The notes under the pieces were generated by a model. That model was not told where the DNA came from and did no database searches. It saw nothing but the letters and a program-made list of their open reading frames with translations. Below are positions 7,519 through 12,365 of a stretch of 64,000 nt of DNA, in pieces. Source of the stretch: Oscillatoriaceae cyanobacterium Prado104 (lineage in GTDB: Bacteria > Cyanobacteriota > Cyanobacteriia > Cyanobacteriales > Microcoleaceae); the NCBI GenBank assembly GCA_025454405.1, contig JALOON010000049.1, forward strand, positions 124,001 through 188,000, given 5' to 3'. The first letter of the stretch is position 1, and every line of letters starts with the position of its first letter. A program made the position numbers and the translations under genes.

Positions 7519-9612
7519 ATGTCAGAACAAGAGCGATCGAAATCATCGATAAATTTCCGCAGCTTTACCGATTGGTGCTTGTACAAAAACAGTCTTTGCG
7601 CCGCAGCCAGACATACAGTTGAAGTGCTGTTGGATAAAGCTGGCACTTCTGACATTAACGAGGCCGATCGTATTCTGTCAAGCAAGGGTAAAATGTCACT
7701 GCAATTCTGTCACATATTAGACATCACACCCCTACAATCTCTGACTAATTTGACTTCTCTGAATCTGACAGGCAATCAAATATCAGACATCACACCCCTG
7801 CAATTTCTAACTAATTTGACTCATCTGCTGCTGCACGACAATCAAATATCAGACATCACACCCCTGCAATTTCTAACTAATTTGACTCATCTGCTGCTGC
7901 ACGACAATCAAATATCAGAGATCGCACCCCTGCAATCTCTCACGAGTTTGAAATTTTTGATTCTGCACGGCAATCAAATATCAGACATCGCACCCCTGCA
8001 ATCTCTCACGAGTTTGACTTCTGTGAATCTGGGAAGCAATAAAATATCAGACATTACACCCTTGCAATTTTTAAATAATTTGATGGGGCTGTATCTGCAG
8101 AGCAATCGAATATCAGACATCACACCCCTGCAATCTCTCACGAGTTTGATTTATGTGAATCTGGGAGGCAATAAAATATCAGACATCACGCCCCTGCAAT
8201 TTCTGACTAATTTGACTTCTCTGAATCTGACAGGCAATAAAATCTCAGACATCACACCCCTGCAATCTTTGACTTGTTTGACTTCTCTCAATCTGGACGG
8301 CAACCAAATATCAAATATTGCGCCCTTAAAATCTCTGATTAATTTGAGTTGGCTGGAGCTGTCTAACAATCAAATATCAGAGATCGTGTCCCTGCAATTT
8401 CTGACTAATTTAACAAATTTAACCTATCTGAATCTGAACTACAATCAAATATCAAACATCACATCCCTGCAAGCTCTGACTAATTTAAATCATTTAGAAT
8501 TGGTCAAAAATCAAATATCAGACATCCTACCTCTGCGATATCTGACTAATTTGCACTCTCTGCGGCTAGACTTCGATCGAGCTGCAACTACACCCCAACA
8601 GAAAGCTCTCCTCGAAACCTGCCGTCATTCCTATAGTTCTCTCGCCAACTCTACAGAACAGATCGATCGCGCAAAAGCCTCAACTGCCCTTCAATCTGCC
8701 TGCGAAATTCTCGGTTTAAAAACTCCTGAAATAATTTTTATCCCTAGTCCAAAAGCAGTGCTATCGCAACTACAAATATCTAAAAAACAGCCTGAAATTA
8801 AATTTGTATTGGAACTAGAAAAACAAGCAATAGATGCACTGTTACCCTTTAGCTTAATAACAGAATTGCAGGGGTACTTTTTGTCGGAAATAGCATGGAC
8901 ACAACAGCTAGAAAATTTATGGGAAGAGGAATTATATGAGCTATCGATAGTAACTCCAAAATACTTGGTTAAGGCTATCGCTATGGCTGAATTTTGTGTA
9001 TCTGGCTTGGGCATTTCACTCAAACCAGAGTCACAGAAATTGTTTGCAGCAATCGAGCAGCTTTTAGCAGAATGCGGCTGGATTTTTATGTTTGAGGATG
9101 TCTTTTATGTTTGTTCGCGCCCTACCAAACTTTCCCTCGACAGCCAATACCGCCTCCACGCAGAGGGAGAAAGCGCGATCGAATTTGCTGACGGCTATAA
9201 AATCTATTCATATCACGGCGTAACTTTGCCTGAAAAATACGGGCACATTCACCCCGAAATGTGGCAAGCCCAATGGCTTTTAGAAGAAGAAAATGCCGAA
9301 CTCAGGCGAGTGTTAATTCAAGGAATTGGTTATGCTAGAATTTGTCAAGAATTGCAAGCCACAGAATTAGATTGCTGGCAAGAGTACGCGCTGCTGAGAA
9401 TTGATGCCGATATTGACGGCTTCAATCCTGAAGATTTTGAGGACGATGATGGTGTTCCTGAAAAAGAACCAATTCATCTGTTAAAAATGACTTGTCCGAG
9501 TACGGGATTCATTCATGCGTTGCGAGTACCGCCCGATATCGCATCCGCCCGCGAGGCAATTCGTTGGGTAAATTGGGATATTGAACCCGAGGAATTTAGC
9601 GTGCAAACTTGA
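7519..9612 (+). CDS. Leucine-rich-repeat protein with DUF6745-like C-terminal domain
   Basis: A 697-residue protein. Residues about 65-360 are some fourteen 22-residue LRRs of the pattern ISDITPLQSLTNLTSLNLTGN, an internalin-like form that builds a curved binding surface. From about 360 the repeats stop and a mixed alpha/beta region begins; residues about 545-697 (YRLHAEGESAIEFADGY, YSYHGVTLPEKY, then a helical ELRRVLIQGIGYARI) resemble DUF6745, found with LRRs in other bacteria, function unknown to me. No signal peptide, so probably intracellular. ATG 7519 follows GAGGTGCC. Two adjacent repeats (7801-7866 and 7867 onward) are identical over about 55 bases, so the array has recently changed length. 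A MITE-like element follows the stop by 15 bases. Confidence 0.88.
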   Translation: MSEQERSKSSINFRSFTDWCLYKNSLCAAARHTVEVLLDKAGTSDINEADRILSSKGKMSLQFCHILDITPLQSLTNLTSLNLTGNQISDITPLQFLTNLTHLLLHDNQISDITPLQFLTNLTHLLLHDNQISEIAPLQSLTSLKFLILHGNQISDIAPLQSLTSLTSVNLGSNKISDITPLQFLNNLMGLYLQSNRISDITPLQSLTSLIYVNLGGNKISDITPLQFLTNLTSLNLTGNKISDITPLQSLTCLTSLNLDGNQISNIAPLKSLINLSWLELSNNQISEIVSLQFLTNLTNLTYLNLNYNQISNITSLQALTNLNHLELVKNQISDILPLRYLTNLHSLRLDFDRAATTPQQKALLETCRHSYSSLANSTEQIDRAKASTALQSACEILGLKTPEIIFIPSPKAVLSQLQISKKQPEIKFVLELEKQAIDALLPFSLITELQGYFLSEIAWTQQLENLWEEELYELSIVTPKYLVKAIAMAEFCVSGLGISLKPESQKLFAAIEQLLAECGWIFMFEDVFYVCSRPTKLSLDSQYRLHAEGESAIEFADGYKIYSYHGVTLPEKYGHIHPEMWQAQWLLEEENAELRRVLIQGIGYARICQELQATELDCWQEYALLRIDADIDGFNPEDFEDDDGVPEKEPIHLLKMTCPSTGFIHALRVPPDIASAREAIRWVNWDIEPEEFSVQT

Positions 9613-10305: not shown

Positions 10306-11166
10306 TCACCTAAGACTTAATAGCTTTGAACCTGCATTCATCTCAGCAACACTGCGTCCAACCGCCGCCGCCAAAGGCCGCAAACTAGCAACCAAATCGA
10401 CCATAGCATCCAAAGAAAGAGCTTGTCGCGCGTCGGAAACAGATTTTTCCGGTTCCGGGTGACACTCAACAATCAACCCGTCAGCGCCGCAAGCAACAGC
10501 AGCTTTAGCCATCGGTGCAACTAATTCCCGCTTGCCGACAGCGTGAGAAGGATCTACAATTACTGGCAAATGAGTTAACTGTTTCAGCGCAGCTACTGCA
10601 CCTAAATCCAACACATTTCGCGTATAATTGTCGAAACTGCGGATGCCCCTTTCACACAAAACTACGTCGGGATTTCCGTGGCTGATAATGTATTCGGCGG
10701 CCATCATCAATTCTTCAATTGTGGCAGACAAGCCGCGTTTTAAAAGAACGGGTTTTCCAGCTTGACCTATCGCTTTTAAAAGCTCGAAGTTTTGCATGTT
10801 GCGGCTGCCTATTTGCAGCATATCAGCATAGGTGACAACAGGTTCGATTTGGGCGATCGACATTACTTCTGTCACCACCGGCAAACCGTAACGGCGGCTA
10901 ACTTTTGCCAAAATTTCTAATCCTGCAATTCCCATTCCTTGGAAAGCGTAGGGAGATGTGCGGGGTTTGTAAACGCCTCCCCGCAAAGCTTGCACCGGTG
11001 CAGTCGCAAGTTTTTCGGCGACTGCTTCCATTTGTTCTAAACTTTCAACGGTACAGGGGCCGCCGACGATTAATAATTCCGTACCGCCGACAGAAACTGT
11101 ATCTGATATTTTGACAATCGTCTGATGTTCGGGATGGGATTTGGTTGCGAGTTTGGCATCTAACAT
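10306..11166 (-). CDS. aroF: 3-deoxy-7-phosphoheptulonate synthase (DAHP synthase, AroF type I-beta)
   Basis: A 286-residue enzyme joining phosphoenolpyruvate and erythrose 4-phosphate, the first step of the shikimate pathway to Phe, Tyr, Trp and other aromatics. Seen: GGPCTVES near residue 35 (PEP/metal Cys), LRGGVYKPRTSPYAFQG, QIGSRNMQN, LLKRGLSAT, LCERGIRSF and the late VDPSHAVGKR and IVECHPEPE motifs with metal-binding His and Glu. The length fits type I-beta without an added regulatory (ferredoxin-like or chorismate mutase) domain. The ATG at 11166 follows CAAGGAGAATACCCTC, a strong ribosome site. Upstream lies a 410-nt leader with two aromatic leader peptides and two terminators, so transcriptional attenuation probably provides the control that the short enzyme lacks. 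Confidence 0.95.
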   Translation of the reverse strand: MLDAKLATKSHPEHQTIVKISDTVSVGGTELLIVGGPCTVESLEQMEAVAEKLATAPVQALRGGVYKPRTSPYAFQGMGIAGLEILAKVSRRYGLPVVTEVMSIAQIEPVVTYADMLQIGSRNMQNFELLKAIGQAGKPVLLKRGLSATIEELMMAAEYIISHGNPDVVLCERGIRSFDNYTRNVLDLGAVAALKQLTHLPVIVDPSHAVGKRELVAPMAKAAVACGADGLIVECHPEPEKSVSDARQALSLDAMVDLVASLRPLAAAVGRSVAEMNAGSKLLSLR

Positions 11167-11214: not shown

Positions 11215-11246
11215 AAAAAAAACCCGGAACTTTAAAGAGTTCCGGG
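11215..11246 (-). terminator. Intrinsic terminator of aroF attenuator 2
   Basis: Read on the minus strand: CCCGGAACT (11246-11238), a 6-nt loop, AGTTCCGGG (11231-11223), then eight U (11222-11215). A 9-bp GC-rich stem with a U-run is a textbook terminator. It lies about 50 bases before the aroF start. Its 5' arm is also complementary to the end of leader peptide 2. Confidence 0.9.
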
Positions 11247-11288
11247 GGCGTGCGAAAAAACAGCGCGACAGTTTACCCGGAACTCCTT
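11234..11288 (-). promoter_or_regulatory. Antiterminator of aroF attenuator 2
   Basis: On the minus strand AAGGAGTTCCGGG (11288-11276, the last codons of leader peptide 2) pairs with CCCGGAACTCTTT (11246-11234). That is 13 pairs with one G-U. The second segment is the 5' arm of the terminator at 11215-11246, so the two structures exclude each other. Confidence 0.8.
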
Positions 11289-11335
11289 CGGGGCCAAAAA
11301 TAAAAGCCGTAATACCAGTTACTGAATAAAGTCAT
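11273..11335 (-). CDS. aroF leader peptide 2, rich in Phe, Tyr and Trp
   Basis: A 20-codon mini-ORF: ATG at 11335, TAA at 11275-11273. The peptide begins MTLFSNWYYGFYFW and ends PRRSSG; eight of 20 residues are aromatic (three Phe, three Tyr, two Trp). Its last codons form the 5' strand of the antiterminator, the arrangement of classical ribosome-mediated attenuators. Upstream, AGG lies 12 bases before the ATG, a weak ribosome site. If aromatic tRNAs are charged, the ribosome reaches the stop, covers that strand and lets the terminator form; stalling at the Trp-Tyr-Tyr codons frees it. Translation is inferred from composition and position. Confidence 0.85.
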   Translation of the reverse strand: MTLFSNWYYGFYFWPRRSSG

Positions 11336-11378
11336 TGCTGTTTTCGCCTGTACTTCTTGTTGCTGAGAAAAAAGATAG

Positions 11379-11411
11379 AAAAAACAAAACCGCAGGTGTT
11401 AAGCTGCGGTT
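11379..11411 (-). terminator. Intrinsic terminator of aroF attenuator 1
   Basis: Minus strand: AACCGCAG (11411-11404), an 8-nt loop, CTGCGGTT (11395-11388), then TTGTTTTTT. The stem can be lengthened slightly by A-U pairs. It lies between the two leader peptides and ends transcripts before the second is reached. Confidence 0.85.
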
Positions 11412-11455
11412 CGCCCGGATGTTCGCAGTGAACTGTAATTCACTCCGGGCGAACC
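11408..11455 (-). promoter_or_regulatory. Antiterminator of aroF attenuator 1
   Basis: Minus strand GGTTCGCCCGG (11455-11445, inside the last codons of leader peptide 1) pairs perfectly with CCGGGCGAACC (11418-11408). A nested 6-bp stem AGTGAA/TTCACT (11444-11439 with 11432-11427) continues it. Four bases (11408-11411) are shared with the terminator stem, so antiterminator and terminator exclude each other. Confidence 0.8.
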
Positions 11456-11496
11456 TTCCAATACCAAAAATAAAAATAGCTGCGTGTTGCGAACAT
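11440..11496 (-). CDS. aroF leader peptide 1, seven aromatic codons in a row
   Basis: An 18-codon mini-ORF: ATG at 11496, TGA at 11442-11440. The peptide is MFATRSYFYFWYWKVRPE, with Tyr-Phe-Tyr-Phe-Trp-Tyr-Trp at residues 7-13 and Phe at 2. Its aromatic content (three Phe, three Tyr, two Trp) equals that of leader peptide 2 and both contain Phe-Tyr-Phe-Trp. The codons after the aromatic run, and the stop, form the 5' strand of the antiterminator. It begins about 80 bases after the predicted transcription start. No strong ribosome site is obvious before the ATG. It senses aromatic amino-acid supply by inference from composition. Confidence 0.87.
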   Translation of the reverse strand: MFATRSYFYFWYWKVRPE

Positions 11497-11581
11497 AATT
11501 AAAGCGATCGAACTCAAGGAATGGACTAAAAGGCTGAGCTAAAAGGTTGCGATTGATGGATTAATCACAACATTACCTGAA

Positions 11582-11610
11582 AACATAGCACAGATCGACC
11601 GGAATGTCAA
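11582..11610 (-). promoter_or_regulatory. Sigma-70-type promoter of the aroF leader
   Basis: On the minus strand TTGACA (11610-11605), a 17-base spacer and TATGTT (11587-11582). The -35 is perfect and the -10 has four of six consensus bases. Transcription would start near 11575, giving a leader of about 410 nt. Confidence 0.7.
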
Positions 11611-11734: not shown

Positions 11735-11968
11735 ATGATGACACAACAAGAGTTGATTAATGAGTTTTTGTCTCTACCTGCTGAAGCACAAAGCCAGGTA
11801 GTAGATTTTATTGCTTTTTTGCGGAAAAGATATACAGTATTTCAACCTGCATCTGGAGCATCAGATATTGACTTGATAAGCGATAAATTTATTGGAATGT
11901 GGCGAGATCGTCAAGATTTAGCTGACAGTAATACTTGGGTTCGGAACGTGCGAAAAACAGAGTGGTGA
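11735..11968 (+). CDS. Antitoxin-like protein of a VapBC-type pair (DUF2281-like)
   Basis: A 77-residue protein with a helical start (QQELINEFLSLPAEAQSQVVDFIAFLRKRY) seen in DUF2281-like antitoxins of cyanobacteria, followed by a charged, probably unstructured tail ending WVRNVRKTEW that could embrace the toxin. Two ATGs in a row (11735 and 11738) follow AAGAAG. The stop is seven bases before the PIN-domain gene, so the pair is an operon. In such systems the antitoxin neutralises the RNase and represses the operon. No classic AbrB or RHH DNA-binding domain is evident. Confidence 0.75.
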   Translation: MMTQQELINEFLSLPAEAQSQVVDFIAFLRKRYTVFQPASGASDIDLISDKFIGMWRDRQDLADSNTWVRNVRKTEW

Positions 11969-11975
11969 ATGTAGC

Positions 11976-12365
11976 ATGACTAATCCAACTATCGTCGATA
12001 CTGATATTTTGATTGATGCTGGTCGCGGTGTTAGCGAAGCAGTTAACTGTTTGCAAAATTTAAAAGCAAGTTCTGGACTAGCAATTAGCATAGTTACAGA
12101 AATGGAACTGATAGTTGGCTGTGCTAACAAAGTAGAACTACAAACATTAGAAAATTTCCTGAAACAGTTTGATATTATTAAGATAGACTTGTCCGTGTCA
12201 GACAAAGCAGTTGAGTTATTGCGGCTTTATCGTCTAAGTCATGGCTTGCTGATTGCCGATAGTATTATCGCAGCTACAGCAATCGTGTGGAATTATCCGT
12301 TTATAACAAAAAACCAACGTGATTATCGATTCATTCAGGGGTTGAATTTGTTGCCATATCCTTAA
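11976..12365 (+). CDS. vapC: PIN-domain toxin RNase, VapC family
   Basis: A 129-residue PIN domain. Seen: VDTDILID at residues 6-13 (first catalytic Asp), an acidic residue in TEMELIVG near 44, LLIADSIIAATAI with Asp near 91, and a final ITKNQRDYRFI with the last Asp. These are the acidic residues of Mg-dependent VapC endoribonucleases, which cleave tRNA or rRNA when free of antitoxin. It follows the antitoxin gene with a 7-base gap. All catalytic positions look intact, so the toxin is probably active. Confidence 0.88.
   Translation: MTNPTIVDTDILIDAGRGVSEAVNCLQNLKASSGLAISIVTEMELIVGCANKVELQTLENFLKQFDIIKIDLSVSDKAVELLRLYRLSHGLLIADSIIAATAIVWNYPFITKNQRDYRFIQGLNLLPYP

What the first reader, a model, noticed from the sequence alone, without database searches (positions are those of the whole stretch)
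11215..11610. Two serial leader-peptide attenuators in front of the DAHP synthase gene
The roughly 410-nt leader of aroF contains, in order on the minus strand: a TTGACA-17-TATGTT promoter, mini-ORF 1 (11496-11440), terminator 1 (11411-11379), mini-ORF 2 (11335-11273), terminator 2 (11246-11215), then aroF. Both mini-ORFs hold eight aromatic codons out of 18 or 20, with the same composition (three Phe, three Tyr, two Trp). In both, the codons just before the stop pair with the 5' arm of the following terminator (11 perfect pairs in unit 1; 13 pairs with one G-U in unit 2). This is the logic of trp/phe attenuators: a ribosome stalled early in the aromatic run frees the antiterminator strand, and one that reaches the stop hides it. 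Leader-peptide attenuation is established in enterobacteria; two in a row, for all three aromatic amino acids, in a cyanobacterium is not something I know from the literature.
Basis: partly seen in the sequence, partly recalled or inferred. Interest (0 to 1): 0.95.

Follow-up and report, generated by a model that had tools for sequence, protein, structure and literature searches.

The report
Double aromatic attenuator before cyanobacterial aroF
In this cyanobacterium the gene for the first enzyme of aromatic amino acid synthesis is preceded by two short reading frames packed with Phe, Tyr and Trp codons, each followed by a terminator-like hairpin; the arrangement recurs in many cyanobacteria and their non-photosynthetic relatives and is predicted to work as two serial switches in which stalled ribosomes would let transcription continue when aromatic amino acids run short.

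Summary
Both aromatic mini-ORFs, both terminators and both competing arms are in the window, and no other ATG frame of 12-30 codons there is as aromatic. In 292 sampled genomes of the phylum, 29 carry this short-form aroF; 27 of these 29 have both units, in the same order, directly upstream. Other model hits are one decayed aroF and six weak matches. The antiterminator helix of unit 1 shows compensatory changes, and synonymous recoding rarely keeps the pairing. In occlusion folding the conserved aromatic run ends about where a stalled ribosome stops freeing the arm.

A further finding: four Obscuribacterales-type genomes with two attenuated aroF copies each pair a Tyr-codon leader with a Phe/Trp-codon leader, as expected if codon identity is the sensor.

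Best reading: two serial ribosome-mediated transcription attenuators for all three aromatic amino acids, controlling the only DAHP synthase detected in this genome, a form without the N-terminal extension of its regulated relatives. Translation, termination and the starvation response are inferred. The mechanism class is known; the phylum, the serial same-signal layout and the isozyme-specific codon split appear new. A 2016 paper states that no reliable data on attenuation exist for cyanobacteria.

The parts
11582..11610 (-). Promoter-like site TTGACA-17-TATGTT with TG before the second hexamer; predicted start of a leader of about 410 nt
   Evidence: 10 of 12 matches; number of such sites in the region is at chance level; the only exact match in the window; TTGACA invariant in 13 of 13 aligned sequences, window included. 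Transcription start not measured.
11440..11496 (-). Leader ORF 1, MFATRSYFYFWYWKVRPE*, 18 aa, 8 aromatic
   Evidence: unit found by model R1 in 72 of 80 named aroF loci (my count) and in 28 of 29 sampled genomes with short-form aroF
11464..11478 (-). Conserved sensor codons of unit 1 (Tyr-Phe-Tyr-Phe-Trp, residues 7-11)
   Evidence: Aromatic fraction 0.90 over codons -12 to -7 in 50 distinct tails; Trp at -8 in 52 of 58
11444..11455 (-). Antiterminator arm A1, the last codons of ORF 1
   Evidence: 12 perfect pairs with 11419-11408; helix 91.9% paired over 41 sequences, 7 of 12 pairs with two-sided changes
11408..11419 (-). Antiterminator arm B1; its last bases are the base of terminator 1
11379..11411 (-). 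Terminator 1: stem AACCGCAG/CTGCGGTT and T-rich tail
   Evidence: 99.4% paired in 41 sequences; the 26-nt hairpin folds at -12.4 kcal/mol, z -5.2
11273..11335 (-). Leader ORF 2, MTLFSNWYYGFYFWPRRSSG*, 20 aa, 8 aromatic
   Evidence: model R2 at its own site in 57 of 80 named loci (my count) and in 28 of 29 sampled genomes with short-form aroF
11294..11317 (-). Conserved sensor codons of unit 2 (Trp-Tyr-Tyr-Gly-Phe-Tyr-Phe-Trp, residues 7-14)
   Evidence: 39 distinct tails; last Trp at -7 in 39 of 43
11276..11287 (-). Antiterminator arm A2, the last codons of ORF 2
   Evidence: 12 pairs incl. one G-U with 11246-11235 (13 if extended by one, read by eye); 91.6% paired in 32 sequences, 3 of 10 pairs with two-sided changes
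11235..11246 (-). Antiterminator arm B2, the 5' arm of terminator 2
11215..11246 (-). Terminator 2: 9-bp stem CCCGGAACT/AGTTCCGGG and T8
   Evidence: 97.6% paired in 32 sequences, 4 of 9 pairs with two-sided changes; -14.7 kcal/mol, z -4.3
10306..11166 (-). aroF: short-form 3-deoxy-7-phosphoheptulonate (DAHP) synthase, 286 aa, without the N-terminal extension seen in longer relatives
   Evidence: PF00793; over the cut-offs of NCBIfam NF006421, TIGR01361 and NF009239, the last a bifunctional model matched only from position 97; aligns from residue 4 to the 276-aa chain 1vs1, and its residue 8 falls on position 74 of 1rzm; only PF00793 match in G000, no PF01474 match

Best explanation
The leader of aroF carries two serial attenuator units, each a mini-ORF rich in Phe, Tyr and Trp codons followed by a terminator-like hairpin, and is predicted to act as two ribosome-mediated transcription attenuators that would sense charging of all three aromatic tRNAs. 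Shown by sequence and comparison: the mini-ORFs, the terminators, and a helix between the last codons of each ORF and the 5' side of its terminator that shares bases with the terminator stem; their conservation, order and gene linkage. Inferred: when charged aromatic tRNAs are plentiful the ribosome runs to the stop codon, covers the ORF-tail arm, and the terminator forms. When one is scarce the ribosome stalls within the aromatic run, the arm stays free and pairs first as RNA emerges, and RNA polymerase reads on. Passage through both units is needed, so read-through would multiply and the induction range widen. In this genome the switch would govern entry into the whole shikimate pathway, because no other DAHP synthase was detected; since this one lacks the N-terminal extension that carries feedback control in longer relatives (recalled), RNA control would stand in for feedback inhibition.
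For: Linkage: 27 of 29 genomes with short-form aroF have R1 then R2 upstream on the same strand; the other two, G116 and G143, have one unit each. Of the 30 R1 genomes, 28 lie at aroF, 1 is a decayed aroF (G030) and 1 is weak (G006). Coding: over the aromatic block the in-frame aromatic fraction is 0.90 and 0.84, against 0.15-0.29 in the other frames, with TAT/TAC and TTT/TTC exchanges and F/Y/W swaps. RNA: two-sided changes in 7 of 12 pairs of antiterminator 1, and slid controls pair at most 49.8% against 91.9%; terminators 99.4% and 97.6% paired; random synonymous recoding of the last seven codons reaches the observed helix score in at most 5% of trials in 52 of 58 and 32 of 43 loci. Geometry: with a footprint reaching 11 nt past the first base of the A-site codon, the competing antiterminator pairs form for stalls up to codon -9 (P 0.99) and -8 (0.74) in unit 1 and up to -7 (0.91) in unit 2, and at P 0.00 with the ribosome at the stop; these limits match the last conserved Trp. 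All three amino acids occur at or upstream of the limit in 54 of 58 and 41 of 43 loci. Codon split: 4 of 4 genomes with two attenuated copies, among 22 searched, pair a Tyr leader with a Phe/Trp leader in unit 1; all 8 copies keep the ORF, an overlapping arm of 8-11 pairs and the terminator in unit 1.
Against: No RNA, ribosome-profiling or starvation data. Shine-Dalgarno-like motifs lie within 20 nt upstream of only 7 of 58 ORF-1 and 9 of 43 ORF-2 starts, so initiation is unexplained. In equilibrium folds of full-length unit 2 the terminator still wins in most loci even with the ribosome stalled early (mean terminator-base P about 0.55 at -14 to -12; antiterminator ahead in 17 of 43), so unit 2 needs co-transcriptional kinetics; in the window itself the antiterminator wins there. 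Whether Trp at -8 of unit 1 is sensed depends on the footprint (mean P 0.90 at 10 nt offset, 0.73 at 11, 0.44 at 12, 0.08 at 14, half of the rows). Covariation of antiterminator 2 is modest: 39-42 of 500 shuffles reach the counts of two-sided changes, and the 86-nt unit-2 segment of the window folds only at z -2.05. The synonymous fraction of unit 1 lies between those of the two wrong frames. R1 misses 8 of 80 named loci (one has only 67 nt upstream) and R2 misses 23 of 80. Trichodesmium L035 has an earlier stop in ORF 1, and L038 has a weakened arm and terminator. In the split paralogues an arm overlapping terminator 2 was found in only 3 of 6 second units examined.
Confidence: 0.88

Rival explanations
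1. The mini-ORFs are arrest peptides: the nascent aromatic peptide, or free aromatic amino acid bound in the ribosome (as in TnaC), stalls the ribosome, rather than uncharged tRNA.
For: The peptide sequence is strongly conserved in cyanobacteria, beyond mere aromatic content; the terminator switch would read either kind of stall.
Against: The aromatic block tolerates F/Y/W swaps and turns into runs of Tyr or of Phe/Trp in paralogues, which fits codon reading better than a specific arrest motif. The C-terminal codons track RNA pairing.
Confidence: 0.06
2. Only one unit is the sensor; the other is a constitutive partial terminator or a relic, so the double layout has no regulatory meaning.
For: Natural single-unit leaders exist: G116 unit 1 only, G143 unit 2 only. 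R1 matches unit 2 weakly in several loci, as expected of an internal duplication. In split paralogues 3 of 6 second units show no overlapping arm.
Against: Both units are kept in order in 27 of 29 genomes, and each keeps codons, arm and terminator. In two genomes with split paralogues (G304, G309) the Tyr versus Phe/Trp identity changed in both units together, apart from one Phe in a Tyr unit; in G308 the Phe/Trp copy's second unit has one Tyr.
Confidence: 0.08
3. A protein- or ligand-controlled leader (T-box, riboswitch, TRAP-like) that merely contains short ORFs.
For: Long structured leader with terminators.
Against: No Rfam family reaches its gathering score in the window, and an E-value scan of the leader gives six weak hits, none a T-box or riboswitch. 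The conserved features are ORF, arm and terminator, with no separate aptamer seen. A TRAP site was not searched for.
Confidence: 0.02
4. The small peptides themselves act in trans, as reported for peTrpL of Sinorhizobium (PMC7298713, start of abstract seen in listings).
For: Conserved peptide sequences.
Against: C-terminal codons follow the RNA arms and synonymous recoding rarely keeps the pairing; strong model matches lie only at aroF or its remnant. A role in trans in addition is not excluded.
Confidence: 0.02

Closest known systems
Corynebacterium glutamicum aroR-aroF attenuator (Neshat 2014, as described in PMC11802643; predicted in PMC4046766; passages seen)
   Same: Leader peptide with Phe-Tyr-Phe before a DAHP synthase gene; ribosome-mediated transcription attenuation
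   Different: Another phylum; one leader peptide in the passages seen, responding to Phe but not Tyr; here two serial units with all three aromatic amino acids
Enterobacterial trp and pheA leader-peptide attenuators (recalled; summarised in PMC11802643, passages seen)
   Same: Regulatory codons in a mini-ORF, alternative antiterminator and terminator
   Different: Here each unit is described by three RNA segments, the ORF tail itself being the antiterminator arm; two units; the target is DAHP synthase
Salmonella mgtCBR tandem attenuators, mgtM and mgtP (PMC3641672, abstract and passages seen)
   Same: Two short ORFs in one leader acting as tandem attenuators; one senses proline codons
   Different: There the two ORFs read different signals (ATP, proline), called a singular example by its authors; here both units carry the same set of codons and each has its own intrinsic terminator
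hisS/hisZ histidine leader peptides in bacilli (PMC2965389, passages seen)
   Same: Leader-peptide system predicted by comparison outside Proteobacteria and Actinobacteria, at paralogous genes
   Different: Different amino acid and gene; no codon split between paralogues is described in the passages seen

Membership tests
Ribosome-mediated (leader-peptide) transcription attenuator | Short ORF in the leader with clustered codons for the end product of the regulated pathway | tested here: met
   8 of 18 and 8 of 20 aromatic codons before a DAHP synthase gene
Ribosome-mediated (leader-peptide) transcription attenuator | The ORF is translated | tested here: inconclusive
   Frame-specific aromatic conservation; few Shine-Dalgarno-like motifs; no ribosome data
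Ribosome-mediated (leader-peptide) transcription attenuator | Intrinsic terminator between ORF and gene | tested here: met
   By sequence and conservation only; termination itself not measured
Ribosome-mediated (leader-peptide) transcription attenuator | Antiterminator that excludes the terminator, conserved by covariation | tested here: met
   unit 1, strong; unit 2, modest
Ribosome-mediated (leader-peptide) transcription attenuator | A stall at the regulatory codons frees, and a ribosome at the stop hides, the antiterminator arm | tested here: met
   Folding model; robust for early codons, footprint-dependent for the last ones
Ribosome-mediated (leader-peptide) transcription attenuator | Read-through rises when the cognate tRNA is uncharged | not testable with these tools
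   Needs RNA from starved cells
T-box riboswitch | Match to the Rfam T-box family | tested here: not met
Rfam leader families (Trp_leader and the like) | Rfam match at or above the gathering score | tested here: not met
   no match in the window; it works like them but matches no Rfam family of this release

The most novel reading that the evidence does not exclude
The aroF leader is an ancient, two-stage RNA controller of the shikimate pathway in the Cyanobacteria/Melainabacteria lineage, and its codon content is an evolvable amino-acid address. After aroF duplicated in Obscuribacterales, one copy's leader was rewritten to Tyr codons and the other's to Phe/Trp codons while the unit-1 arm and terminator stayed, giving tyrosine- and phenylalanine/tryptophan-controlled DAHP synthase isozymes by RNA alone: a codon-based counterpart of the regulated isozymes of E. 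coli.
Probability: 0.65. Interest if true: 0.9.

Novelty: new variant of a known kind. Interest (0 to 1): 0.83.

Why it matters
If true, classical leader-peptide attenuation extends to Cyanobacteria and Melainabacteria; one comparative paper states that there is no reliable data on attenuation in cyanobacteria (PMC4833913, discussion section read). It offers a serial, same-signal design whose gain over a single unit can be measured, with natural single-unit leaders as controls. It suggests how a DAHP synthase without the N-terminal extension of its regulated relatives, the only one detected in this genome, could be kept in check, and gives a handle for engineering aromatic production in cyanobacteria. 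The Tyr versus Phe/Trp split between paralogues makes the evolution of regulatory specificity readable from codons.

Tried and rejected
Rfam families for the leader: nothing at gathering score; NsiR1 at E 0.08 and five others judged chance. Aromatic leaders before pheA (L142) and the two trpE-type genes (L143, L144) of the same genome: none convincing; one 10-aa frame in L144 was taken as chance. R2 hit L140 is a hairpin between the ends of two convergent genes; the other weak hits (G006, G023, G124, G156, G180) were not read and are not counted as members. Whole-helix mean pairing was replaced by the competing pairs only, because arm and terminator of unit 1 overlap by only 3-7 nt. Independent origin of two Tyr/Phe-Trp splits: the tree forces two label changes, but, with L152 and long-form paralogues, does not rule out one, so no claim is made. 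No attempt was made to place L063 (labelled Actinobacteria) and L066 (Chloroflexi); they may be misbinned.

Rows dropped: and one search used 68 of 80 named loci (L070-L081 came later). The folding sets (58 unit-1 rows and 43 unit-2 rows, window included) leave out L038, L039 and L064 for unit 1, L017 and L069 for unit 2, and all rows without a called ORF, terminator or arm. The footprint scan used every second row, 29 and 22, and codons -11 to -5 or -3 only. Alignments A1 and A2 keep 41 and 32 rows after a 93% similarity filter and the same omissions. The 22 genomes were chosen by me from the Melainabacteria-type loci.

Full report
What is there. The two mini-ORFs are the only ATG frames of 12-30 aa with at least 40% aromatic residues in the whole window, and 0 of 2000 shuffles of the leader have two. 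The number of promoter-like sites in the region is at chance level and that of terminator-like sites little above it, so the case rests on the hairpins' stability and on comparison.

Conservation. A scan with AroF gave 80 named loci, the best 80 of 246. Covariance models were built from 41 unit-1 and 32 unit-2 sequences. R1 finds unit 1 at E 1.6e-4 or better in 72 of the 80 loci (one, L045, only in part, cut by the contig end); missing are L011, L019 (67 nt upstream only), L061, L068, L073, L077, L078 and L079. R2 finds unit 2 at its own site at E below 1e-3 in 57 of 80, and 55 of 80 have both (my counts from the tables). The sequences that built the models are among these. In some Melainabacteria unit 2 is present but beyond the model, as read by eye in L056. 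A drawn sample of 292 genomes of the phylum gives the fairer picture: 29 have an AroF at least 69% identical to the window's (the next best is 53%); R1 lies 63-339 nt and R2 16-175 nt upstream on the same strand; 28 of 29 have R1, 28 of 29 have R2, 27 of 29 have both, always R1 first. G116 has unit 1 only and G143 unit 2 only. In this sample genomes without this aroF gave no match to either model, except G030, where R1 sits before an aroF fragment, and six weak hits, of which one (L140) was read and is an ordinary terminator; the search used strict filters that can lose weak matches. Two genomes of the window's own genus (G195, G203) lack both gene and leader.

Peptide-level selection. In the block -12 to -7 of unit 1 (50 distinct tails) and -14 to -7 of unit 2 (39) the in-frame aromatic fraction is 0.90 and 0.84; the other frames give 0.15-0.29, and the +2 frame runs into stops. 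The synonymous fraction of codon differences is 0.19 (unit 1) and 0.35 (unit 2), against 0.12/0.22 and 0.15/0.24 in the shifted frames, so for unit 1 this measure is not decisive; the aromatic fraction is.

RNA-level selection. The helix between the ORF-1 tail and the terminator-1 side is 91.9% paired over 41 sequences, with 7 of 12 pairs changed on both sides; sliding by 1-3 columns gives 27.9-49.8%. Terminator 1 is 99.4% paired, 3 of 8 pairs changed on both sides, though its number of further pair types is not above the shuffles. For unit 2 the antiterminator is 91.6% paired with 3 of 10 pairs changed on both sides, a weak signal (39-42 of 500 shuffles reach the counts), and the terminator is 97.6% with 4 of 9. 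Random synonymous codons for the same peptide tail reach the observed helix score in at most 5% of trials in 52 of 58 and 32 of 43 loci; the window's values are 0.5% and 0%.

How it would work. I folded each unit with the ribosome's footprint held unpaired (from 15 nt before to 11 nt after the first base of the A-site codon), stopping the transcript after the terminator's 5' arm. In unit 1 (58 loci) the competing antiterminator pairs form at P 0.99 for codons -12 to -9, 0.74 at -8, 0.07 at -7 and 0.00 at the stop. In unit 2 (43 loci) they form at 0.94-0.95 from -14 to -8, 0.91 at -7, 0.65 at -6, 0.25 at -5 and 0.00 from -4 to the stop. The conserved Trp that ends each run is at -8 in 52 of 58 and at -7 in 39 of 43, that is, at the edge. 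The edge moves with the assumed footprint: for offsets of 8 to 14 nt, stalls at -11 and -10 always left a mean P of at least 0.93, and at -5 (unit 1) or -3 (unit 2) it was 0.00. PMC4833913 (discussion read) also puts the ribosome's cover at up to 12 nt past the stop codon. All three amino acids lie at or upstream of the edge in 54 of 58 and 41 of 43 loci. Without a ribosome the antiterminator forms first (0.99 and 0.84), so an untranslated leader is predicted to be on. In full-length equilibrium folds the unit-2 terminator is usually the more stable, so antitermination there has to be kinetic; in the window itself the antiterminator wins for the early codons. Termination, stalling and multiplication over two units are inference.

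The gene. AroF is a 286-aa DAHP_synth_1 protein. It aligns from residue 4 to the 276-aa chain 1vs1 and from residue 13 to the 262-aa 1zco, while 1rzm, of 338 aa, carries about 73 N-terminal residues before the match; that this extension is the regulatory domain is recalled. It is the only PF00793 match in the genome, rated 99.94% complete, and no PF01474 match exists. Many other cyanobacteria carry a longer paralogue of about 350 aa, roughly 50% identical; three such copies, from Melainabacteria-type genomes, were examined and have no aromatic leader.

Codon split between paralogues. In 22 genomes of Melainabacteria-type loci, chosen by me and searched for AroF, four have two attenuated copies: G309 (L072 MRNFGFFWFSEVHPG and MSNKGFWFFAFRVPGR; L074 MTRKYYYYHNDEVHQM and MSQQRTYYYYQSRTLRGSPR), G308 (L080 Phe/Trp; L071 Tyr; a third copy, L079, without leader), G307 (L070 Phe/Trp; L075 Tyr with one Phe) and G304 (L152 Phe/Trp; L064 Tyr, with one Phe in unit 2). 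In all four the first unit of one copy has no Tyr and that of the other is dominated by Tyr, while the tail motif (EVHxx/EVRxx) is kept in all eight. R1 matches all eight first units (E 5.3e-14 to 1.4e-5), and each has a terminator and an overlapping arm of 8-11 pairs. Second units were seen in six of the eight copies: all six have a terminator, three have an overlapping arm (L152, L064, L074), and that of L080, a Phe/Trp copy, contains one Tyr. In the Phe/Trp clade of the tree, the two genomes in which no Tyr copy was found (G311, G313) have Tyr in their leader. Of 17 genomes with one attenuated copy, 15 have Tyr in unit 1 (G306 only at residue 2); G297 and G303 do not, which counts against a strict rule, although L051 of G297 is the sister of L152, whose genome has a Tyr copy. 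G310 has no leader. In the tree the Tyr copies L071, L074 and L075, the five Phe/Trp-clade copies and four leaderless copies each form a group at 100/99, with L064 and the leaderless L073 elsewhere; with other rows the support is 100/98, 94/90 and 100/100. Whether the split arose once or twice is open.

Novelty. Literature (open-access PMC papers only, and the four longer lists were capped at 20 or 30 of 49 to 117): no title or abstract start in the listings concerns a cyanobacterial leader-peptide attenuator or an aroF leader in this phylum. PMC4833913 (2016) says there is no reliable data on attenuation in cyanobacteria; PMC2965389 (2010, passages) knew amino-acid leader peptides only from Proteobacteria and Actinobacteria before adding bacilli. 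Precedents: aroR-aroF of C. glutamicum (PMC11802643, PMC4046766, passages) and the tandem mgtCBR attenuators with different signals (PMC3641672, passages). The mechanism is therefore a known kind; the phylum, the serial same-signal layout with three amino acids, and the isozyme codon split are the new part. Subscription papers, among them Lopatovskaya 2010 (seen only as a reference in PMC4833913), were not read and might hold earlier predictions.

Noticed in passing
L071, L074, L075 versus L070, L072, L080; L064 versus L152: Obscuribacterales-type aroF paralogues in one genome carry Tyr-codon versus Phe/Trp-codon leaders; taken up in the report as the novel case.
   Followed up: yes
L110 (G030:C48:74041-74155): Unit 1 survives in front of an aroF remnant with unit 2 and the gene start gone; the genome keeps longer AroF paralogues.
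   Followed up: partly
L104 (G116) and L135 (G143), also L061: Natural single-unit leaders: unit 1 only (G116), or unit 2 only (G143, with a TTGACA site upstream, and L061); good controls for the value of two units.
   Followed up: partly
window 11546-11571 and alignment A3: A palindrome-like element (TTGTG-N7-CACAA in several relatives) lies just past the predicted transcription start, upstream of ORF 1; it could be an operator or a third hairpin.
   Followed up: no
L002, L018, L021: About 170-210 extra nt lie between unit 2 and aroF compared with relatives, perhaps a small mobile or repeat insertion.
   Followed up: no
L005, L007 and others, unit-2 sites: Model R1 weakly matches unit 2 (best E 4.3e-4), which hints that the two units arose by duplication.
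   Followed up: no
window 11735-12365, plus strand: Two small ORFs (77 and 129 aa) divergent from the aroF promoter look like an antitoxin and PIN-domain toxin pair; judged from memory, not searched.
   Followed up: no
window 7519-9612, plus strand: An ORF of 697 aa with leucine-rich repeats (by eye) lies convergent to aroF, so aroF appears to be transcribed alone.
   Followed up: no
L063 and L066: Contigs labelled Actinobacteria and Chloroflexi carry this aroF with a unit-1 leader (L066 with both units); misbinning or transfer.
   Followed up: no
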